Source: Clostridiales bacterium (GTDB lineage Bacteria > Bacillota > Clostridia > UBA1381). Taken from it: DNA of 35,868 nucleotides. The translations under genes were made by a program, and so were the position numbers. Below the pieces are notes generated by a model. That model ran no database searches and was not told where the DNA came from. It worked only from the letters and a program-made list of their open reading frames with translations. Of this stretch, positions 4,285 to 14,027 are shown in pieces (the first letter of the stretch is position 1; the number at the start of each line of letters is the position of its first letter). Location: NCBI GenBank assembly GCA_029219925.1, contig JAQXUJ010000149.1:1-35868 (forward strand), in the 5' to 3' direction.

Positions 4285-4305
4285 GAGTATTATTAATGAA
4301 TACTC
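4285..4305 (+). promoter_or_regulatory. 5'-UTR hairpin just before the ribosome site of the SLH protein
   Basis: GAGTATT and AATACTC form a perfect 7-bp stem with a 7-nt loop, ending 7 bp before the GGGAAG ribosome site of the surface-protein gene. There is no T tract, so it is not a terminator. It could protect the mRNA 5' end or influence ribosome access. The rest of 4173-4325 is AT-rich, and I see no convincing promoter hexamers there. Confidence 0.5.
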
Positions 4306-4325
4306 TAAGAAGGGAAGAAAATATT

Positions 4326-6368
4326 ATGAAAAAATTTTTTAGTATTATTTTATGTTTAGCAATGCTTTCAGCATTACCGGTTTCTGCGGCAGAAGACCCG
4401 ATGGAAGCTGCTTTGGGTTCCGTAAAGGAACGTATTGAAATCCCCGCAGAGCTTACCGAGTTTGAAAGCAGAACCTTAAAGGACGATAACAACAATATAA
4501 CCTACGACTTTAACTGGTCGGACAAAGAAGGAAAAATGCTTGAAATACAATGCGATAAATACGGCAGAATTTCAAGCTATTGGTCATGGGACAACAGCGA
4601 GCATGACGGAGAAACTCATCTTTCGCCGTATACTAAGGCAGACGCTCTTTCCTTCGCAGAAAGCTTTTTAAAACAGGTTATGCCTGATGTATTCAGCGAT
4701 ATTTCCTGTCTGGAATTGGATAATGACGGTGGAATCGGTTCAATGGACAGCTACGGAACAAGCTATACCTTTAATTTTATCCGTAAGTATGAGGGGGTTG
4801 AGGTTTTATCCAACAATACATCTGTAACCGTTATTGCGTCTGAGAACGGTCTGACTGTACGCCGTATGTTCTCCGAATATGATTATGACACCGAATTTAT
4901 TATTCCGGAAAATGAATTGGATAATCCCGAACAGGCATATCGGACAGCTTTCCCAATAAAACTGCACTATGAAAAGGATTACGAAAAATCAGAAGATACA
5001 GACATTGATATTACCAAGCTTGTTTATTCGGTTGAGGAAAGCGGAACAGGCTTTATTTCAGCCGAAAACGGTGAAATTAAAAAGGAGAAGCTTCATGCCG
5101 AACCTTATCCTGTGAACGAATCGGCAATGGATGCCGCAGCCGGGGACAGTTCTTTCTCAAGAAAAGAGTCCTTTACAGAAGCGGAACTTGCTGAGCTTAA
5201 TAATGTTGCGGGACTAAAAACCGAACAGGAAATTGAAAAAATATTCCGTAATATTTCAGATTTACAAATGACTTCCGAAATGAAGCTGAAAAATTCTCAG
5301 ATTTATAAATATGATGACAATTACATAATGAATTTATATTTTTCAGATGATAAGAACCGTTCATTATACGTATCTGCTGACGCAAAAACAGGAGAAATAA
5401 AATCCATAAATAATTACAATAACAATAATTACGACAAAGATTACGAAATATCAGAAACTCAAAAAGCAGAAACCGAAAAGAAAGCGGAAAACTTTTTAAA
5501 ACTCGCAGCGCCGGATATTGCTGCAGAATATGAGCTTGATACTCTTAACAGCAGCTCGTCAACCGCAAGTCTTTATTATGTAAGAATGGTAAACGGCGTT
5601 GACTATTCGGTTAACTTCGCAAATATCTCATATAATGTTAAAACCGGAATGCTGACAAATTATTATATAAATTACAGTGACGCAGCGTTTGATAATCCCG
5701 AAAATGCAGTTGATGGTGACACAGCATATGATAATCTTCTTTCAAAATATCCTCTTAAAAAGATTTATGTATTAACAGACAGCGATATGTTTGAGCTATG
5801 CTACACGCCGTCTAAGGGATATTTGAATATTGACGCAATTTCCGGCGAAGTAATAGAAACGTCGGAACAGCAAGGAGAATTTTCCGACATTAAAGGACAT
5901 TGGTGTGAAAATGCTGTTACACGCCTTGCTGAAGTAGGAATACGCCTTAGCGGCAGCGAATTTAAACCTGACGAAGAAATAACCAAGAGCGACCTATTAA
6001 AGCTTTTTGGCGCGGGATTGGAAGGAACAGGGTATCTTTATTATAAGAACAGCGATATTGCCTCATCTATGCTTCGAATGAAGGTAATAAAAAAGGACGA
6101 ACCTGTTGATGAATCTCCTGTCACCAGGGAAGATGCATGTGTTTATATGGTTCGTCTGGCAGGGTTTGAACGTGTTGCCAAGCTTACCGATATATTTAAG
6201 GTGAGCTTTTCAGACAGCGCCGATATTTCTCCCGAAAAAATCGGTTATGCCGCTATTTTGTCCGGTATGGGTATTGTAGCCGGTGATAATGGAGAACTTC
6301 TGCCTAAACAAAATATTACCCGTGCTGAAGCTGCTCAAATGCTTTATGTTTATTTATTATCAGATTAA
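4326..6368 (+). CDS. Secreted surface protein with YcdB/YcdC-type repeats and C-terminal SLH domains
   Basis: I chose the ATG at 4326, not the ORF-track start, because it follows AAGGGAAG and opens a classic signal peptide (MKKFF, hydrophobic core, ALPVSAAE cleavage site near residue 22). The mature protein is about 660 residues. Residues about 100-500 hold repeated units of the YcdB/YcdC (DUF4901/PepSY-like) kind, recognisable from ADALSFAESFLKQVMPDV and KKAENFLKLAAPDIAAEYEL with following beta-rich segments. From about residue 517 there are SLH-type units: FSDIKGHWCENAVTRLAEVG, a weaker one near 595, and a last one ending ITRAEAAQMLYVYL. SLH domains usually bind pyruvylated secondary cell-wall polymer, so this is probably anchored at the cell surface. 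Its biochemical role is unknown; no catalytic motif is visible. Confidence 0.82.
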   Translation: MKKFFSIILCLAMLSALPVSAAEDPMEAALGSVKERIEIPAELTEFESRTLKDDNNNITYDFNWSDKEGKMLEIQCDKYGRISSYWSWDNSEHDGETHLSPYTKADALSFAESFLKQVMPDVFSDISCLELDNDGGIGSMDSYGTSYTFNFIRKYEGVEVLSNNTSVTVIASENGLTVRRMFSEYDYDTEFIIPENELDNPEQAYRTAFPIKLHYEKDYEKSEDTDIDITKLVYSVEESGTGFISAENGEIKKEKLHAEPYPVNESAMDAAAGDSSFSRKESFTEAELAELNNVAGLKTEQEIEKIFRNISDLQMTSEMKLKNSQIYKYDDNYIMNLYFSDDKNRSLYVSADAKTGEIKSINNYNNNNYDKDYEISETQKAETEKKAENFLKLAAPDIAAEYELDTLNSSSSTASLYYVRMVNGVDYSVNFANISYNVKTGMLTNYYINYSDAAFDNPENAVDGDTAYDNLLSKYPLKKIYVLTDSDMFELCYTPSKGYLNIDAISGEVIETSEQQGEFSDIKGHWCENAVTRLAEVGIRLSGSEFKPDEEITKSDLLKLFGAGLEGTGYLYYKNSDIASSMLRMKVIKKDEPVDESPVTREDACVYMVRLAGFERVAKLTDIFKVSFSDSADISPEKIGYAAILSGMGIVAGDNGELLPKQNITRAEAAQMLYVYLLSD

Positions 6369-6407: not shown

Positions 6408-6454
6408 AAATCCCGTCAAAGTCATATAAAATCTTGACTTTGACGGGATTTTTT
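6408..6454. terminator. Bidirectional terminator between the SLH gene and ppx
   Basis: AAATCCCGTCAAAGTCA at 6408-6424 pairs perfectly over 17 bp with 6435-6451, with a 10-nt loop. The right arm runs into six T residues, giving a strong terminator for the rightward gene. The leftward ppx stop codon lies at its edge (6453), so the same hairpin probably ends both convergent transcripts, though the leftward T run is poorer. Confidence 0.92.
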
Positions 6455-7301
6455 ACATCATCGAATTTTTTATCAGGTATCCGTCGCGTACTCCGCATTT
6501 CTTCACGAAAATTTCTTTTTTTCCATAACATTCAGCTATAGTTTGCATTATAATTATTCCAACAACGATATTATCATATCGGTTTTTTATTACATTCCTT
6601 ATTTTTTCTTCGGGATTTTCCTCAATATACTGAATAAGCCTGTCCAACATTTCAACATTTAATATATCGGTATTCTCACGGCTGTTTAAATAGCTGTAGA
6701 ATTTGGCGGCAGTTTTTGCTGTTCCTCCCATCATATAGATTTTTCCTTCCTGTCTGCACCCGTTAAGCATTTCATGTATGCATAATTTTATTTTTTTCTT
6801 TTCCTCACAGGTAGGGAATTTTCCGCTGACAAATTTATTTTTCATATTCCGGCATCCGATAGGATAAGATTTTGAAAAGGTCAAATCACCTTCCTTAAAA
6901 ATCATTATCTGACCGCTTCCTCCTCCTAAATCTACACCTATTCCGCTTTCTTTTCTTCCAATTGTGGATTTAAGTCCCAAAAAATCGTATTCCGCCTCTT
7001 CATCACCACTCAGAATATCAATACTTATTCCCGTTTGTAAATACACCCTATTCTTAACCTCTTCACGGTTTTCGAGAACACGGACAGCATATGTGGCAAA
7101 TGCCATAACAGGTATTTCTCCCGCTTTTTCCTTTAAATAAATAAGAGCATTACAAAGCTTTTCTATTCCTTCATCAGAAAGCCTGTTATTTTCGGTGTCC
7201 CCTATTATTTCTGAATTTAAAGCAATATTTGATACACTTTTCCCCATATAAAATGTAACCAATCTGATGGTATTTGAACCAATATCTATAATCCCTGTCA
7301 T
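6453..7301 (-). CDS. Ppx/GppA-family phosphatase (exopolyphosphatase or pppGpp phosphohydrolase-like)
   Basis: 282 residues. The opening GIIDIGSNTIRLVTF is the first phosphate-binding loop of the ASKHA fold, and GIGVDLGGGSGQIMIF (about 120) is the second, with the DLGGGS signature of Ppx/GppA. Known activities are hydrolysis of polyphosphate or of pppGpp to ppGpp, both cytoplasmic. It covers just the two ASKHA halves, without the C-terminal HD-like domain of the long E. coli Ppx. Two in-frame ATGs exist. I prefer 7301 because GGAGG is 8 bp upstream of it but only 2 bp from the ATG at 7307. It sits directly after the terminator of the upstream gene, so it may be expressed by read-through. Substrate cannot be told from sequence. 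Confidence 0.85.
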   Translation of the reverse strand: MTGIIDIGSNTIRLVTFYMGKSVSNIALNSEIIGDTENNRLSDEGIEKLCNALIYLKEKAGEIPVMAFATYAVRVLENREEVKNRVYLQTGISIDILSGDEEAEYDFLGLKSTIGRKESGIGVDLGGGSGQIMIFKEGDLTFSKSYPIGCRNMKNKFVSGKFPTCEEKKKIKLCIHEMLNGCRQEGKIYMMGGTAKTAAKFYSYLNSRENTDILNVEMLDRLIQYIEENPEEKIRNVIKNRYDNIVVGIIIMQTIAECYGKKEIFVKKCGVRDGYLIKNSMM

Positions 7302-7323
7302 ATGCATATCCTCCTTTTTTTAC

Positions 7324-7350
7324 AAAAAAAGAGTATTCATAAGAATACCC
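7324..7350 (-). terminator. Terminator between the HisRS-like gene and ppx
   Basis: On the reverse strand GGGTATTC-ttat-GAATACTC forms an 8-bp stem with one G-U pair, followed by seven T residues. It begins directly after the stop codon of the gene at 7351. The ribosome site of ppx lies only 10 bp past the T run. It is a strong intrinsic terminator by shape, so it may attenuate ppx expression within the operon. Confidence 0.85.
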
Positions 7351-8142
7351 TTAATGTCCGTGATGGTGTCCGCAATCACAGTCATCTCCATGATGATCGT
7401 GACAGCAGCAGTCCTCATCTTCTTCATAATAACCCAAGAAGTCAGCAACGGTCGTTTCAGTTATTTCATCCTTTAAAAAGTCCTTAATAAGAAGTTTTCC
7501 GTCGGCATACACCCTTATTATACACGACAATCCCTTATCGACAGTATATTTTTCCGCATCTTCAATATTCCCGTCTTCATTATAATACTCAATAATACAG
7601 CCGTTCACACGAAGATTATATGCCACATCATATGCAAGTCCTTCTGCATTTTTTTCCGCAAAAACCAGACTTCCTTCCGCCTCCCGGCCCTTTATATCGG
7701 CACCCGCTTTTTCCAATGCCTTTAAAAATGACGGTATTAATATAGTACAGCTGCTTTCCTTTTCTGTAAAAACTCCCCTTGCAAAAATTTCATTATTAGC
7801 CGATACTGTAAATTTTGTTTCATTTTCACCGTTCATTCTGACCATTTTTTCAAATCCAAACAGAACCAAAAGGTCATATAAAGCAGCGTCACATACCGAA
7901 ATCTCAAAATTTTCAAGACCGTTCGCCATAGCAGCCTCAGCGCATAATGCCGCCATTTCCGCTCTTTGCTTTGCCGTTGCGCTGCCACTCATTACAACAG
8001 CCTCATCACCGTTTAAATAAAATAATTTTTTATTGTGTAAATCAATCAATTTTACTTCTTCTGTTTCCGAAAAACCAAAAGAAGTAAAAACTGTCCACAA
8101 AATGTCCTGAACCTCTTTCTTTTTTCCGCACAAATTAATCAT
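7351..8142 (-). CDS. Histidyl-tRNA-synthetase/HisZ-like paralogue with Cys/His-rich C-terminal tail
   Basis: 263 residues; not a standard annotated family that I can name with certainty. Several stretches follow the HisRS/HisZ pattern. AEMAALCAEAAMANGLENFE (about 61-80) matches the helix before motif 3, and LRVNGCIIEYYN plus AEKYTVDKGLSCIIRV and KLLIKDF (about 178-225) match the HisRS anticodon-binding domain. I do not see the arginine motif 2 or histidine-binding motifs, so aminoacylation is unlikely. The protein ends in about 30 acidic residues rich in Cys and His (EDCCCHDHHG, then CDCGHHHGH), a composition typical of Zn, Ni or Co binding. AAAGGAG lies 6 bp before the ATG, and it follows the helicase-loader gene by 19 bp in the same operon. 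HisZ (regulatory partner of short HisG) is an alternative, but no his gene is nearby. Confidence 0.55.
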   Translation of the reverse strand: MINLCGKKKEVQDILWTVFTSFGFSETEEVKLIDLHNKKLFYLNGDEAVVMSGSATAKQRAEMAALCAEAAMANGLENFEISVCDAALYDLLVLFGFEKMVRMNGENETKFTVSANNEIFARGVFTEKESSCTILIPSFLKALEKAGADIKGREAEGSLVFAEKNAEGLAYDVAYNLRVNGCIIEYYNEDGNIEDAEKYTVDKGLSCIIRVYADGKLLIKDFLKDEITETTVADFLGYYEEDEDCCCHDHHGDDCDCGHHHGH

Positions 8143-8161: not shown

Positions 8162-9148
8162 TTATTCTCCCTTTGTAAGCCTTGCCTTTCTAATATCCTC
8201 TGCTTCAAATCTCAGAATAATAAAGCTTTCAAACAATCTTGACTCAATTCGTTCGGTATAAAGCCTTATAAGCCCCTGAACGGTCATATTTGTACTTATT
8301 ATCATCTTTTTTTTCAGTCCTATTCTCTTATCAACCATATCGAACAAAAACTGCTTTGACAGAGGAGTCGGCACCTCAACACCCATATCGTCTATTATAA
8401 GAAGGTCCGCCTGTTCCATCATATCAAGAGTTTTCTCAAAATCATTATCCTTTCTCCTTCCGAATTTATAATCCTCATATTCGGAAAAAAGATTTACAGC
8501 AGTTACATATACGACCGTTTTCCCCATATCCATCATTCTTTTTGCTATGCAAGAGGATAAAAACGTTTTTCCTACGCCGCAGCCGCCGTAGAAAAGAAGA
8601 TTTTTAAAGTCGTCCTTTTCACAGAATTTTATTGCTGTATCATAAATACTCTTCATATTTTCCTTTTCTGTCATATTAAGAGAGGGAATTTTTCTATCAC
8701 TGTAATAATCAAAGGAAAATTCCGAAAAATCATGCAGCATATTTTCCATATTAGACATTTTATGGTGCATTTTAATAATTTTATTTACAAAGCACGGGCA
8801 TTTTTTTCTGTCGATATACCCCGTATCAAGACACTTTTCGCATTTATATTTTACCTCGTCATAATCGAGAGGAATATTATTTTCAAGGAGAAGTCTTTTT
8901 CTTTTTTCCTTCAAGTCAGCAAGTTTTTTTTCAAATTCCCTGTTAAATTCCGCACTTTTCTCCGGATTTTTCAGAATTCTTCCCATATTTTCAAGACCCG
9001 CCGCGGAAATATCCTTTTCAATCTTCAGAATCTCCGGAAATTTCTCATGCACATCCTTAACTCTCTTTTCCCGGTCAAGCCGTGCGACGGTTCGGTCATA
9101 ATCGTATTCATTCATTATTTTTGTTATTGCTTCATCGGAATAACTCAT
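8162..9148 (-). CDS. DnaI/DnaC-type helicase-loader AAA+ ATPase
   Basis: 328 residues. An N-terminal helical region is followed by a zinc-type cluster CEKCLDTGYIDRKKCPCF (about 106-123), as in B. subtilis DnaI. The AAA+ core has Walker A FYGGCGVGKTFLS (about 186-198), Walker B LLIIDDMGVE (about 251-260) and a sensor-1 IISTNM segment (about 285-290). Known role: loading the replicative DnaB-type helicase on single-stranded DNA at the origin or at restarted forks. It lacks the features of an IS21 IstB, and no transposase is nearby. Its placement in the dnaA-dnaN direction, about 3.3 kb downstream of the candidate oriC, supports a replication role. Its ATG overlaps the hemZ stop codon (ATGA), with AAAGGAG 7 bp upstream. 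Confidence 0.85.
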   Translation of the reverse strand: MSYSDEAITKIMNEYDYDRTVARLDREKRVKDVHEKFPEILKIEKDISAAGLENMGRILKNPEKSAEFNREFEKKLADLKEKRKRLLLENNIPLDYDEVKYKCEKCLDTGYIDRKKCPCFVNKIIKMHHKMSNMENMLHDFSEFSFDYYSDRKIPSLNMTEKENMKSIYDTAIKFCEKDDFKNLLFYGGCGVGKTFLSSCIAKRMMDMGKTVVYVTAVNLFSEYEDYKFGRRKDNDFEKTLDMMEQADLLIIDDMGVEVPTPLSKQFLFDMVDKRIGLKKKMIISTNMTVQGLIRLYTERIESRLFESFIILRFEAEDIRKARLTKGE

Positions 9149-10605
9149 ACTTCTTCTCCTTTCCCCGATTTCCTGTAAAATTCGGCTATTTCTTCCTTTT
9201 TTTCAAGGATTTCATCAAATCTTCTTATATATTCATACGGTTCCTTAAAATTAACGACTCTTTCTATCCGGTCACCCATTACAACCTTTGACGCTCCGCC
9301 GCCTCCTAAGGCTATTATTGTCTGAATTTCCTCCATGATATTAATGTTGTATGAAGACATATGACTTTTATCGGCATATCCTACATTTTCAAGATTTCCG
9401 GAAATATTTTTCTGACGGTACATATAATATGGTTCTTTACCCGCTTCCATCATCTTTTTTTGAGCATATCCGAGCATTTTATTCATTTCTTCATAACCGG
9501 TAAGTCCGTATTCTGATAATTTAAGAGCGGCAGCTCTTTTTACGCACATTGAATGAACTGTTACCTCCTCCGGATTAAGCTTCAGAATTTCATCAATGCT
9601 TTTTTTAAACATATTAAAATTCTCATCCGGAAGTCCGGCAATCAAATCGGTATTTATATTTTCAAATCCCAGCTTTCTTGCGGCGGCAAAAGCCTTTAAA
9701 AATTCTTCGACCGTATGCTTTCTGCCTATTTTGACAAGGGTTTCATCATTCATTGTCTGAGGATTTATACTTATTCTGTTAACTCCTCCGTATTTTGCAG
9801 TCATCAGTTTTTCTTCCGTTATGGTATCCGGTCTTCCCGCCTCAAGGGTAAATTCGTCAAGACGAGATAAATCGATATTTTTATTTATGCTTTCAAATAT
9901 TCTACCCAAATTTTCCTCAGACAAGGTTGTGGGAGTGCCGCCTCCTATATAGATGTTCTGCACCGAAAATCCAAGCTCCTTTAAGATTTCTCCTGTTTTT
10001 TCAATTTCTCGGCACAAAAGACGGCAAAATTCGTCCATATAAATTCCGCTGTGCTTTATATCGGTGGATACAAATGAACAGTAAAGGCAGCGTGAGGGAC
10101 AAAAAGGAATCCCTATATAGATGCTCACAGAATTTTCAAATGCTCTTTTTAATATTTCCTCTTCATTTTTTGCAACATTAACCGCAAGCTCGCATTTTTC
10201 TTCCGAAACACCGTATATATCACGGATTATCTTCTTTACTTCCTCATAATCGTATCCTTCATCATGAAGCTGACGGACATTTTTTGCCGGACGAATTCCG
10301 CTCATTACTCCCCATGGAAGAGGTATGTTTCTTATTTTTTTCGCGGCATTACAAAAACTTTTCATACAGCAACAGCCATATATTTTCTTTTTCTTTTTTT
10401 CATCCGATTCGGAATTTTTAAAATTAAAGCTATAATTTCCTTCAAATTTTTTATTTTCAAAAATAATCTCTGTATGAACCCTTACAACATCGTTCTCATG
10501 TATAAAATCGGTTATAACCGTCCCTTTTTCGTCTTTACCGAAAAAGATATTCAGAAAAACATTCATTTCATAGGCGCAGCTGTAGCCTCTTTGTATTAAT
10601 TCCAT
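9145..10605 (-). CDS. hemZ: HemZ-type radical SAM protein (coproporphyrinogen dehydrogenase family)
   Basis: 486 residues from the preferred ATG at 10605, which has AAAGG 7 bp upstream; the track start at 10638 has no clear ribosome site. The first 150 residues form the HemZ-specific N-terminal domain. The radical SAM cluster motif is GIPFCPSRCLYCSF, with three cysteines for a [4Fe-4S] cluster, followed by the IYIGGGTPTTLS glycine motif that binds SAM. Known members of the wider HemN family decarboxylate coproporphyrinogen III or act as heme chaperones (HemW). The clostridial HemZ branch is poorly tested, so haem synthesis should not be assumed. No other haem gene is present. Its stop overlaps the helicase-loader start by 4 bp. 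Confidence 0.85.
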   Translation of the reverse strand: MELIQRGYSCAYEMNVFLNIFFGKDEKGTVITDFIHENDVVRVHTEIIFENKKFEGNYSFNFKNSESDEKKKKKIYGCCCMKSFCNAAKKIRNIPLPWGVMSGIRPAKNVRQLHDEGYDYEEVKKIIRDIYGVSEEKCELAVNVAKNEEEILKRAFENSVSIYIGIPFCPSRCLYCSFVSTDIKHSGIYMDEFCRLLCREIEKTGEILKELGFSVQNIYIGGGTPTTLSEENLGRIFESINKNIDLSRLDEFTLEAGRPDTITEEKLMTAKYGGVNRISINPQTMNDETLVKIGRKHTVEEFLKAFAAARKLGFENINTDLIAGLPDENFNMFKKSIDEILKLNPEEVTVHSMCVKRAAALKLSEYGLTGYEEMNKMLGYAQKKMMEAGKEPYYMYRQKNISGNLENVGYADKSHMSSYNINIMEEIQTIIALGGGGASKVVMGDRIERVVNFKEPYEYIRRFDEILEKKEEIAEFYRKSGKGEEV

Positions 10606-10660
10606 TTTATCGCCTTTCATAAAGCATCTTTCCGACATAGATCGATAATTAAATCATCTA

Positions 10661-11257
10661 TTAATTTATTCTAAAATATCCGTTTTTCTTTTCCTCGCCT
10701 ATTGTGGTAGAGGGTCCATGTCCCGGATAAACCTTGGTTATATCCGGAAGTGCATATAACTTTTCAACAGAATTTTTCAATTTCTCATAATTTCCCGTAG
10801 GTAAATCCCACCGTCCTACACTTCCGGCAAATAGCGTGTCTCCGGAAAAAAGGCTGTTTCCGGCTAAATAGCAGGCACTCCCATCGGTATGTCCCGGTGT
10901 GTAGATACATTTTACCCGTATACCATCTAAATTCTTTTCCTCTCCGTCCGAAAATATTCTATCTCCTGAGGAACGAGGAAGTATCTCCTTTTCGCAAAGA
11001 CTAATTTCAGGATTAATCATATTAACACCACAAAGTTTGGATGTCAGCACCTTTTTTCCCCGTCTAATCTCATTCAACGACCATAAATGGTCATAGTGAC
11101 AGTGGGTTAAAAGTATATAATTTATTTGTATATTTTCCGTTTCTCTTAAAATTTTAAAGGTATCAATACCGGGGTCAATCAAGATTCCTCTTTCTCCTTC
11201 TTTCAGGAGATAACAATTCTGCCCCATCTGTTCTGAAATAATAGTTTTAACTTCCAT
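10661..11257 (-). CDS. Metallo-beta-lactamase-fold hydrolase, glyoxalase II-like
   Basis: 198 residues, the size of short MBL-fold hydrolases (YcbL type). All metal ligands are visible: THCHYDH (about 51-57), the YTPGHTDGS histidine (about 119), the SGDTLFAGSVGRWDLP aspartate (about 140) and the YPGHGPST histidine (about 182). Proteins of this shape cleave S-lactoylglutathione or related thioesters; most Clostridia lack glutathione, so the natural substrate is uncertain. It starts 2 bp after dnaN with no clear ribosome site of its own, so translation is probably coupled to dnaN. It is conserved in form, not truncated. Confidence 0.85.
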   Translation of the reverse strand: MEVKTIISEQMGQNCYLLKEGERGILIDPGIDTFKILRETENIQINYILLTHCHYDHLWSLNEIRRGKKVLTSKLCGVNMINPEISLCEKEILPRSSGDRIFSDGEEKNLDGIRVKCIYTPGHTDGSACYLAGNSLFSGDTLFAGSVGRWDLPTGNYEKLKNSVEKLYALPDITKVYPGHGPSTTIGEEKKNGYFRIN

Positions 11258-11259
11258 AA

Positions 11260-12393
11260 TTAATTATAAAGACGAACAGGAAGTATCATGAACACATAGC
11301 TGTCGTCATTTGAATTAGAGCGGATAAAGCAGGAGCTTCTCGGATTTGAAAATTCCATTTTCACTTCCTCTTCTTCACAGGCTCTTAATGCCTCAAGAAG
11401 ATATTTGTGGTTAAATCCTATTTCAATGTCGTCACCGCTTACCGAAACATCCACAACGTCATGAACCTTGCCTTTGCCGGTCATACATGTAATTTCTATT
11501 TTATCCATTACAATATTAAGGCGCACAGGCACCTTTTCCGCCTTTGCGGAAATATCATCATTAATAAGAAGAGAGGCTCTTTCAAGACTTTCGGAAAGCT
11601 CCGCGGTATTTGCTACCACAACAATACTGTTTGGGGTAGTCAAAACCGGCTTATAATTAATGTATTCACCCTCAAGAAGCCGGGTAATCACTCTATATCT
11701 GTCAAATTCAAACATGGCATGCCTATCCGAAACAATAACGGAAACAGTCTTTTCCTCGTCGTCCTCCAAAACCTTAAATATTTCACGAAGGGTAAGTCCG
11801 GGCAAAACGAACTTTTTACTTTCAAGAGAGGAATCAACAATTTCTTTGCACATTGCAAGGCGGTAACCGTCGGTTGAAACAATCGAAAGAACGCCGGTTT
11901 CAATTTCAAAAAGAGAGCCGGTTAAAATAGGCTTTCTTGCCTCGTTCTGAGAAACGGCAAAAATCGTTTTTCTTATCATTTTTTTAAGGACCGTCTGTTT
12001 TATTGTAAAACGGTAGGTCTCGGTAATATCGGGAACAGCTGGATATTCATAGCTGGAAAGTCCCTGTATATTAAATTCGGATTTTCCGCATTTAATAGTC
12101 ATAACATTATTTTCTTCATTAACGGTTATAAGAATATCACTGTCGGGAAGACGCCTTACAATTTCTCCGAAAATCTTTGATGAAATTGCGATACTTCCAC
12201 CTTCCTGCACATTGCATTCATCAATGTATTCAATGCAAAGGTCAAGATTATTCCCGGTAACAGCAAGAGTCCCGTTTGCTTCTGCGTCAATTTTTATGCA
12301 TTCCAAAATAGGCATTATAGTTTTTGATGAAACAGCCTTCTGAACTGTATTAATAATTTTTAAAAGCTGCTGTTTGCTTATGGTTAGTTTCAT
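11260..12393 (-). CDS. dnaN: DNA polymerase III beta subunit (sliding clamp)
   Basis: The start is ATG 12393 (MKLTISKQQLLKIINTVQKA), not the track start at 12543: AAGGAG sits 8 bp upstream, and the extra 50 residues run through the AT-rich probable origin. The resulting 377 residues are a normal clamp length. Diagnostic segments are KTIMPILECIKIDAE, YEYPAVPDI, the TDGYRLA motif and the terminal YVFMILPVRLYN. The last is the family's C-terminal M-P-x-R-L hallmark that closes the partner-binding pocket. The clamp encircles DNA and tethers polymerase. dnaA lies 253 bp upstream in the same direction, the common arrangement, but recF, gyrB and gyrA do not follow; an MBL hydrolase does. Confidence 0.97.
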   Translation of the reverse strand: MKLTISKQQLLKIINTVQKAVSSKTIMPILECIKIDAEANGTLAVTGNNLDLCIEYIDECNVQEGGSIAISSKIFGEIVRRLPDSDILITVNEENNVMTIKCGKSEFNIQGLSSYEYPAVPDITETYRFTIKQTVLKKMIRKTIFAVSQNEARKPILTGSLFEIETGVLSIVSTDGYRLAMCKEIVDSSLESKKFVLPGLTLREIFKVLEDDEEKTVSVIVSDRHAMFEFDRYRVITRLLEGEYINYKPVLTTPNSIVVVANTAELSESLERASLLINDDISAKAEKVPVRLNIVMDKIEITCMTGKGKVHDVVDVSVSGDDIEIGFNHKYLLEALRACEEEEVKMEFSNPRSSCFIRSNSNDDSYVFMILPVRLYN

Positions 12394-12646
12394 TATTATC
12401 TCTCCTTTGTGCGGATAACTGAATCTTTTGTTTTTTTCATAGGTAGGTACGTATATATAATATATTTTTAGTAGTATATAGTAGTAACTGTGAGGATTTG
12501 ATGGAAATCTCTTTTTTACCCCGTAATAACGGGAAAATTCCATTCAAAAGCATATGTTAACAAAGTGTGGAATTATGAAAGTTTTCAACTGGTAAAAACC
12601 GGAAAAAAATTATTAACCGGTATTCCACATTTAAAAGTGAATAAAA
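12394..12646. other. dnaA-dnaN intergenic region: candidate oriC with DnaA-trio element
   Basis: 253 bp without a gene. On the + strand TAGTAGTATATAGTAGTAA (12469-12487) is a run of TAG/TAA triplets next to an AT-rich tract (GTATATATAATATATTTTT, 12451-12469). Read on the dnaN sense strand this is TTACTACTATATACTACT followed by A/T, which closely resembles the DnaA-trio and unwinding element of B. subtilis oriC, at the same place between dnaA and dnaN. DnaA-box-like 9-mers flank it: TGCGGATAA at 12410-12418 (8/9 to TTATCCACA on the reverse strand), TATTCCACA at 12621-12629 (7/9) and TGTGGAATT at 12566-12574 (6/9). No perfect box is present. A dnaN promoter is not obvious, so dnaA read-through is possible. 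Confidence 0.6.
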
Positions 12647-13978
12647 TCAAAGGGAATTAATATCCTTGATAATGGCGTCAATATCGGCTTTTAAGCCGCT
12701 GTCAGACTTAATTGATTCCATAATTTTATCCACACCGTACATAACCGTTGTTCTGTCACGGTTTCCAAGAGCCTTTGCTATCATAACAAAATTCATATCG
12801 GTAAGAGTTTTGCAAAGATACATGGCAACCTGACGGGGAAAGGCAATATTTTTCTGTTTTGATTTTCCCAAAAGCTCGTCCTCCGAAATATTATAGAAGG
12901 AGGAAACGCTTTCAATAATCTTCTGGGGAGTTATCTTAATAATACCGTCGTCAGGTATTATTGATTTTATGGCTGCTTCGGCAATTTCCATATTAACGCT
13001 GGTATGTTTTATACCGGCGTAGGAAATAATTTTTAAAAGAGCGCCTTCAAGCTCACGTACATTTGAATCAATTCTTTCGGCTATATAGGAAAGAACCTCT
13101 TCACTTATATATGTGTTTTGACTTTCTGCCTTTTTTTTCAGAATTGCCACGCGTGTTTCGTAATCGGGGCTGATAATATCTATATTAAGACCCCATTCAA
13201 AACGGGTTTTAAGACGTTCTTCAATTGTAACCAGATCCTTTGGCATACGGTCGCTTGTTAGAACAATTTGTTTATTGTTAAGGTACAGGTCGTTGAAGGT
13301 ATGGAAAAATTCCTCCTGAATACCCTGTTTGTTTTCGATAAACTGAATATCGTCTATTAACAGAACATCGACGTTTCTGTACAGCTGACGGAAGGAACCC
13401 ATATCTTTTACATGCAGAGATTCAATCATTTCATTGGTAAATCTCTCGCTTGTTACGTATACCACCTTCATGTCAGGCGAATTTTTTAAAATTTCATTGC
13501 CGATTGCCTGCATAAGATGAGTTTTTCCCAAACCGGAATTTCCATAAAGAAACAATGGATTGTTTTTTTCCTGTCCGGGATATTTTGCGGTGCTCATGGC
13601 AATTGCAGTTGCATATTCGTTAGATGAGCCTACAACGAAGTTATCAAAAGTGTATCTCGGATTAAGATGACTTTTCACTGCCGGCGTTACGGCTTGTCTG
13701 ACCGGTGCCGCCGGGCTTTCCGGAGTGTATTCATCCTTAAGGACAATTGTCAGTTTAACCGGCGCCGCCGTTATTTTTGAAATTGATTTTTCTATTATGG
13801 AGGTGTATCGGAGTTCAATCATTGTTTTACAGAGCTGTGAAGAAACACCCGCCACAAAGCTGTTGTTTTCAAAGGAAATGGGAACAATGTCCTTAATATA
13901 TGTATTGTATCCCACAACCGAATTGATGTCCTGCTTTATATATGAAAGGGAAGCAGTCCATATTTGTTTTATATCCAT
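12647..13978 (-). CDS. dnaA: Chromosomal replication initiator DnaA
   Basis: The start is ATG 13978 (MDIKQIWTASLSYIKQDIN), with AGGGGGA just upstream, not the track start at 14011. This gives 443 residues, a normal DnaA length. Domain I (1-80) is followed by a short Pro/Ala-rich linker. The AAA+ core begins at NPRYTFDNFVVGSSNEYA, with Walker A GNSGLGKTHL and Walker B VLLIDDIQFI. The DNA-binding domain IV ends with DRTTVMYGVDKI, matching the DnaA signature that reads the DnaA box. Known role: DnaA-ATP opens oriC and recruits the helicase. A promoter lies at 14028-14056 and the candidate unwinding element lies downstream, between this gene and dnaN. Confidence 0.97.
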   Translation of the reverse strand: MDIKQIWTASLSYIKQDINSVVGYNTYIKDIVPISFENNSFVAGVSSQLCKTMIELRYTSIIEKSISKITAAPVKLTIVLKDEYTPESPAAPVRQAVTPAVKSHLNPRYTFDNFVVGSSNEYATAIAMSTAKYPGQEKNNPLFLYGNSGLGKTHLMQAIGNEILKNSPDMKVVYVTSERFTNEMIESLHVKDMGSFRQLYRNVDVLLIDDIQFIENKQGIQEEFFHTFNDLYLNNKQIVLTSDRMPKDLVTIEERLKTRFEWGLNIDIISPDYETRVAILKKKAESQNTYISEEVLSYIAERIDSNVRELEGALLKIISYAGIKHTSVNMEIAEAAIKSIIPDDGIIKITPQKIIESVSSFYNISEDELLGKSKQKNIAFPRQVAMYLCKTLTDMNFVMIAKALGNRDRTTVMYGVDKIMESIKSDSGLKADIDAIIKDINSL

Positions 13979-14027
13979 TTTTATCCCCCTACCGGAATTT
14001 ATACATATCAAAAAGAGTCCTACTCTA

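What the first reader, a model, noticed from the sequence alone, without database searches (positions are those of the whole stretch)
7351..8142. Degenerate HisRS/HisZ-like protein with a Cys/His-rich tail in the dnaN-side operon
The gene keeps the HisRS pre-motif-3 helix and anticodon-binding domain patterns but I cannot find aminoacylation motifs, and it ends with a stretch like CCCHDHHGDDCDCGHHHGH. A synthetase paralogue fused to a metal-binding tail, transcribed with a helicase loader, has no named function that I know. It could sense histidine, uncharged tRNA or metal.
Basis: partly seen in the sequence, partly recalled or inferred. Interest (0 to 1): 0.65.

Follow-up and report, generated by a model that had tools for sequence, protein, structure and literature searches.

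The report
Stripped HisZ remnant with metal-like tail
This gene is what is left of a bacterial histidine-synthesis regulator (HisZ, itself a descendant of a tRNA-charging enzyme) after its enzyme-like core was cut out, while one small domain and a cysteine/histidine-rich, probably metal-binding tail were kept under selection, which suggests that the end of the protein has a job of its own.

Summary
In detail: 7351-8142 (-) is a conserved 263-aa gene ending in 12 Cys/His of 22 residues. It descends from HisZ, the regulator of HisG, not directly from HisRS. Of 50 same-family genomes with a match, 41 have a full-length HisZ, next to hisG in 40 (the other ends at a contig edge). Many of these carry the same kind of tail, so the tail is not a new fusion here. 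In nine genomes (seven of the window's genus, G056, G068) the protein is short, never beside hisG, and lacks motif 2, the YYTG and GGRYD motifs, the insertion domain and the motif-3 Arg. The own genome has a separate compact hisZ-hisG-hisD cluster. The retained C-terminal domain is acidic and lacks the HisRS Lys/Gln stretch, so tRNA sensing is unlikely. Selection is purifying, strongest on that domain, yet one congener deleted the gene cleanly. Similar Cys/His elements sit on heavy-metal P-type ATPases, HtpG and zinc-ribbon proteins in the family. Best reading: a non-enzymatic cytosolic metal-binding protein built from HisZ leftovers. Origin about 0.9 certain; metal function about 0.45.

The parts
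7351..8142 (-). CDS, 263 aa: HisZ-derived short protein
8053..8124 (-). residues 7-30: remnant of the motif-1 helix of HisZ (KKKEVQDILWTVFTSFGFSETEEV)
   Evidence: alignment with full-length HisZ
7834..7986 (-). residues 53-103: retained core helix and strand (AEMAALCAEAAMANGLENFEISV) joined to the LYDLLVLFGFEKMV helix; the insertion domain between them is deleted
   Evidence: helix 57-73, strand 79-83, helix 86-94 in the model
7708..7818 (-). residues 109-145: shrunken antiparallel strands and motif-3-like strand-helix without the motif-3 Arg; YYTG and GGRYD motifs gone
7423..7674 (-). residues 157-240: HisZ-type anticodon-binding-like domain, 38-77% identical to that of other short and full-length members
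7354..7422 (-). residues 241-263: Cys/His-rich tail EDEDCCCHDHHGDDCDCGHHHGH
   Evidence: disordered in the model
7329..7352 (-). terminator-like hairpin directly after the stop codon
8162..9148 (-). upstream neighbour: DnaC/DnaI-like ATP-binding protein (NF005304)
   Evidence: order conserved in the genus
6453..7307 (-). downstream neighbour: Ppx/GppA-family protein; next to the short gene also in G056 of another genus
9145..14011 (-). rest of the same-strand run: hemZ, MBL-fold hydrolase, dnaN, dnaA

Best explanation
The protein descends from the HisZ of this bacterial family, which often carries a C-terminal Cys/His tail. SHOWN by comparison: in lineages where a compact hisZ-hisG-hisD cluster supplies HisG and its partner (the window's genus and G056), or where no hisG was found (G068), the family-type HisZ has lost its synthetase-like active-site region and insertion domain, yet kept the N-terminal helix, a shrunken core, the C-terminal anticodon-binding-like domain and (except in G068) the tail. 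SHOWN: the remainder is under purifying selection, strongest on the C-terminal domain. INFERRED: it is not an enzyme, does not regulate HisG and does not read anticodons; a small folded body presents the disordered tail, which binds soft or borderline metal ions (Zn, Ni, Cu or Co) and acts as a cytosolic metal buffer or chaperone, in the way the Cys/His-rich tail of the co-chaperonin HspA does for nickel in Helicobacter. The C-terminal domain may dock to a partner that full-length HisZ of this family also uses.
For: Origin: C-terminal domain profile against full-length HisZ E=1.3e-39, HisRS only 2.7e-4; N-part profile against full-length HisZ E=2.4e-14, with HisRS, compact HisZ and shuffled controls at about 0.04 or worse. 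Tree: all short forms fall with family HisZ, apart from HisRS, 99/99. Full-length relatives pass the HisZ cut-off TIGR00443 and sit beside hisG. Replacement: own compact cluster; short form in 9 of 9 genomes without hisG beside it. Intermediate: the G068 short gene still sits between a CDF transporter gene and ttcA, the ancestral neighbours, with hisG and hisA gone. The retained domain is dispensable for HisG work: G023/G026/G029 HisZ beside hisG lack it, and in G003 it is replaced by HisG in one frame. Selection: G060/G065 dN 0.24, dS 1.35 overall; C-terminal domain dN 0.15, dS 0.95. Metal: 12/22 Cys/His; the same CxCGHxH element on heavy-metal P-type ATPases, HtpG and zinc-ribbon proteins, none in the reversed-pattern control. 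Not tRNA: domain charge.
Against: No metal binding was measured, and disordered Cys/His runs can be tolerated without function. The tail is absent from G068 and from several full-length HisZ groups (g2, g10, g17), so it is not needed everywhere. G067 of the same genus has cleanly lost the gene, so it is not essential. No metal transporter or known metal-enzyme maturation gene lies beside it in the window. In the window's own genome no second protein with the CxCGHxH pattern was found, and HtpG in this genus has no Cys/His insert. Which came first, the compact operon or the shortening, is not resolved.
Confidence: 0.5

Rival explanations
1. It is a decaying HisZ: after the compact his cluster took over, the old gene shrank and is on its way out; domain and tail have no present function.
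For: Several internal deletions relative to HisZ; fast N-part (35-63% identity inside the genus); clean loss in G067.
Against: Open frame kept in 7 of 8 genus genomes where the locus could be read, at a fixed operon position; dN/dS about 0.18 for G060/G065, and the C-terminal domain 76-78% identical in several pairs at near-saturated synonymous sites; the tail keeps its Cys/His character while its sequence changes.
Confidence: 0.2
2. It still works in histidine control: a minimal HisZ that binds HisG or the compact HisZ and tunes ATP phosphoribosyltransferase, perhaps in response to metal.
For: HisZ descent; a short-form HisG is present in the own genome.
Against: The deleted parts hold most of the synthetase-like body; HisZ proteins that lack the C-terminal domain still sit beside hisG or are fused to it, so what this protein kept is what HisG does not need. 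Short forms also occur where no hisG was found (G061, G063, G068), though these genomes are only 73-80% complete.
Confidence: 0.12
3. It is an RNA or uncharged-tRNA sensor, in the manner of the HisRS-like domain of GCN2, perhaps linked to the neighbouring Ppx/GppA-family protein and the stringent response.
For: HisRS-type fold (Foldseek E=2.5e-10; the GCN2 HisRS-like domain 9bf3 also matched, E=1.1e-6); adjacency to a Ppx/GppA-family gene in two genera.
Against: The domain is acidic, net -5 to -10 (HisRS -2 to +5), and the HisRS stretch GLKxQMKYADK is not conserved. A terminator-like hairpin separates the gene from ppx in the window.
Confidence: 0.08

Closest known systems
HisZ, ATP phosphoribosyltransferase regulatory subunit (TIGR00443 / PRK12292)
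   Same: Descent; N-terminal helix, part of the core, C-terminal anticodon-binding-like domain. Among characterised HisZ, those of A. baumannii and P. arcticus have a C-terminal domain that those of L. lactis and T. maritima lack (PMC10795190).
   Different: Here the synthetase-like active-site region and insertion domain are deleted, hisG is not adjacent, and a separate HisZ sits with HisG.
Histidyl-tRNA synthetase (TIGR00442) and its C-terminal domain
   Same: Overall fold of what remains.
   Different: No catalytic motifs; acidic C-terminal domain without the HisRS Lys/Gln stretch.
[quoted passage not shown]
   Same: Works-like comparison only: a housekeeping-type body with a Cys/His-rich tail; that tail binds nickel, and its deletion lowers cell nickel and raises nickel sensitivity (review PMC3856676).
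   Different: Unrelated body; metal binding not tested here.
GCN2 HisRS-like domain
   Same: Degenerate HisRS body in a non-synthetase protein; Foldseek match 9bf3.
   Different: No kinase; body far smaller; charge argues against tRNA binding.

Membership tests
HisZ (TIGR00443) | Score above the curated cut-off of 271.65 bits | tested here: not met
   No TIGR00443 match for the window protein; full-length relative L031 scores 341.9
HisZ (TIGR00443) | Synthetase-like core with motif 1-3 regions and YYTG/GGRYD regions | tested here: not met
   Alignment: only remnants of the motif-1 helix and motif-3 strand-helix remain
HisZ (TIGR00443) | Shared descent with HisZ | tested here: met
   Profiles E=1.3e-39 and 2.4e-14, tree 99/99
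HisZ (TIGR00443) | hisG next to it, as in full-length relatives | tested here: not met
   hisG lies on another contig (C246) beside a different hisZ
HisZ (TIGR00443) | Binds and regulates short-form HisG | not testable with these tools
   Needs a protein assay
Histidyl-tRNA synthetase | Motif 2, VRGLDYY, GGRYD and motif-3 Arg | tested here: not met
   the genome has a separate HisS with these motifs (C24)
Proteins with a metal-binding Cys/His tail (HspA-like in working) | C-terminal Cys/His-rich extension | tested here: met
   12 of 22 residues, P=3.6e-13
Proteins with a metal-binding Cys/His tail (HspA-like in working) | Binds Ni/Zn/Cu/Co | not testable with these tools
   No binding assay possible

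The most novel reading that the evidence does not exclude
The C-terminal domain plus Cys/His tail of tailed HisZ is a metal-responsive arm that ties histidine synthesis (histidine being a metal ligand) to metal load, and the window protein is that arm set free: a metal sensor or chaperone made from a twice-derived tRNA synthetase, encoded with replication genes.
Probability: 0.15. Interest if true: 0.75.

Novelty: new variant of a known kind. Interest (0 to 1): 0.42.

Why it matters
It shows a second step of repurposing in a synthetase line (HisRS to HisZ to a stripped protein) and a natural dissection: where HisG no longer depends on the protein, the C-terminal domain and tail survive, and in other lineages where HisG still has it as neighbour, that same part has been dropped. 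This makes the unexplained C-terminal domain of HisZ a testable independent module. Tails of the same kind on HisZ, HtpG, zinc-ribbon proteins and metal-export ATPases point to a metal-handling habit of this bacterial family that I did not find described in the papers searched.

Tried and rejected
phmmer against PDB sequences gave only chance hits (FOXL2, E=0.56). PHROGs: nothing. Direct descent from HisRS: rejected by tree and profiles. A new fusion of the tail to a synthetase paralogue: rejected, since full-length HisZ carry it. The CDF transporter beside hisZ as support for a metal function: set aside, since it is found in g2, g4 and g16 and does not follow the presence of the tail. HtpG inserts in the own genus: looked for, absent. 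The structure model rests on 7 sequences only (pLDDT 59, pTM 0.41), so its fold matches are supportive, not independent, and the high rmsd values (14-19 A) mean that domain placement is not to be trusted. Literature searches for a Cys/His-tailed HisZ found none. dS is near saturation for most pairs, so dN/dS is usable only for G060/G065.

Full report
CHECK. The gene at 7351-8142 (-) is real and codes for 263 aa. It has no Pfam match and only sub-threshold NCBIfam matches to HisZ (E=7e-4, residues 136-223) and HisRS (E=0.0085). The tail has 12 Cys/His in 22 residues against a background of 3.1% (P=3.6e-13). The gene is the last of a same-strand run dnaA-dnaN-MBL-hemZ-DnaC-like-gene, followed by a terminator-like hairpin at 7352-7329 (10 pairs, z=-3.4) and then a Ppx/GppA-family gene.

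RELATIVES. A search of 70 genomes of the same family found 50 with a match. Nine are short proteins of 249-300 aa: the window, six further species of its genus (G060-G065), G056 (genus g13) and G068 (g16). Forty-one are full-length (or contig-cut) HisZ proteins, mostly 411-468 residues in open frame. In 40 of these 41, hisG lies just downstream on the same contig; in the last, G007, the contig ends there. None of the nine short genes has hisG next to it. L031, a full-length tailed member, passes the HisZ cut-off TIGR00443 (341.9 against 271.65 bits). Where the surroundings were read, the full-length order is usually hisZ-hisG-hisA, often followed by a ttcA-like gene, and sometimes with a cation-efflux gene upstream. 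The Cys/His tail is present on full-length HisZ of nine other genera, so it is older than the shortening; groups g2, g10 and g17 lack it, and the g10 and g17 proteins read end in a GFRR/GFRM-type motif instead.

REPLACEMENT. The own genome carries a compact hisZ (366 aa) - hisG (212 aa) - hisD cluster on contig C246 and a normal HisRS on C24. G062, G064, G065, G067 and G056 have the same compact cluster. Genus g12 (G054, G055) has the compact cluster and no family-type HisZ was found there. In G068 the short gene still lies between a cation-efflux gene and ttcA with hisG and hisA missing, and it keeps more of the HisZ core (PF13393 E=1.7e-9), like an intermediate. G068 groups with a full-length HisZ (91/86) rather than with the other short forms, and G056 is unresolved, so shortening may have happened more than once; a single origin is not excluded.

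WHAT WAS KEPT. Alignment: kept are the motif-1 helix, the helix-strand unit AEV..A.IEA..A.GLE.F.V.V, the YELLCLYGFEKYI helix, a motif-3-like strand-helix, the whole C-terminal domain and the tail. Lost are motif 2, the YYTG and GGRYD motifs, the motif-3 Arg and the roughly 85-residue insertion domain. Profile comparison: N-part against full-length HisZ E=2.4e-14; against HisRS 0.043, compact HisZ 0.039, five shuffled controls 0.04-0.65. C-terminal domain against full-length HisZ E=1.3e-39, against HisRS 2.7e-4. The exact placing of the LYDLLVLFGFEKMV segment differs between the two alignment methods; the reading above rests and on the close match of G068. The AlphaFold model (7 sequences, pLDDT 59) shows the expected alpha/beta C-terminal domain, a small core and a disordered tail; the best PDB match is HisRS 1qe0, E=2.5e-10. 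The alignment contained HisZ, so this is not independent of the sequence evidence.

SELECTION. For G060/G065, the only usable pair (dS 1.35), dN is 0.24, about 0.18 of dS; the C-terminal domain has dN 0.15, dS 0.95. The neighbours have dN 0.14 (ppx) and 0.12 (DnaC-like). Among the pairs examined by region the domain is 65-78% identical while the N-part is 35-63%. One species, G067, has a clean deletion: the DnaC-like stop is followed after about 34 bases by the ppx start. In G066 the contig ends at this point.

FUNCTION. The part retained here is dispensable for HisG: five g7 genomes (G017, G023, G026, G027, G029) have HisZ frames of only 333-336 residues with hisG on the same contig (three read in full, 329 aa), and in G003 HisZ runs on into HisG in one frame with this domain gone. 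So the domain and tail probably serve something other than HisG. tRNA binding is unlikely: net charge is -5 to -10 in the short forms against -2 to +5 in HisRS, and GLKxQMKYADK is not conserved. Metal binding is suggested by composition and by company: the pattern for CxCGHxH was found in 16 of 41 relatives and never in the reversed control; besides HisZ it lies in the N-terminal extension of heavy-metal P-type ATPases (G001, G014, G068), in the linker of HtpG (G008, G014, G032) and at the C-terminus of zinc-ribbon proteins (G008, G014) (names assigned by reading the sequences, HtpG also by Pfam). One hit in an IleRS (G059) and one in a short frame of G075 look incidental. The precedent for a Cys/His tail on an unrelated housekeeping body is HspA of Helicobacter pylori (PMC3856676). 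A tie between histidine synthesis and copper stress has been reported for Brucella (PMC13001215). Both are analogies, not tests.

VERDICT. Descent from HisZ about 0.9; non-enzymatic metal-binding role about 0.45; combined statement 0.5. It is a new variant of a known kind, of moderate interest.

Noticed in passing
G003:C188 (L044, L087): HisZ and HisG are read in one open frame of 579 codons, with the HisZ C-terminal domain replaced by HisG: a natural HisZ-HisG fusion (or an assembly join).
   Followed up: partly
G023:C30, G026:C2, G029:C1 (L181-L183): HisZ of 329 aa next to hisG has lost the whole C-terminal domain and tail, the mirror image of the window protein.
   Followed up: partly
L129/L144/L149 (G014:C5), L127 (G001:C18), L141 (G068:C105): Heavy-metal P-type ATPases with long N-terminal Cys/His stretches of CGCGHDHHEH type.
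   Followed up: partly
L189 (G014), L150 (G008), L146 (G032), L188 (G031): HtpG/Hsp90 with a Cys/His insert (ECDCGHDHE type) in the linker before the PLW motif; absent in the window's genus.
   Followed up: partly
G066:C18:3366-4721 (L187): A second Hsp90 that scores far better against Pfam (E=1e-110) than the genus's HtpG, with two in-frame TGA codons; perhaps a contaminating contig.
   Followed up: no
L108 9576-13118, L109 15163-16899, L111 5142-8739: In several species of the genus, genes that look like an electron-bifurcating [FeFe] hydrogenase (by reading the N-termini only) lie just beyond ppx.
   Followed up: no
window 4296-6368: 690-aa protein with YcdB/YcdC repeats (DUF4901) and an S-layer homology domain, on the opposite strand just beyond ppx.
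   Followed up: no
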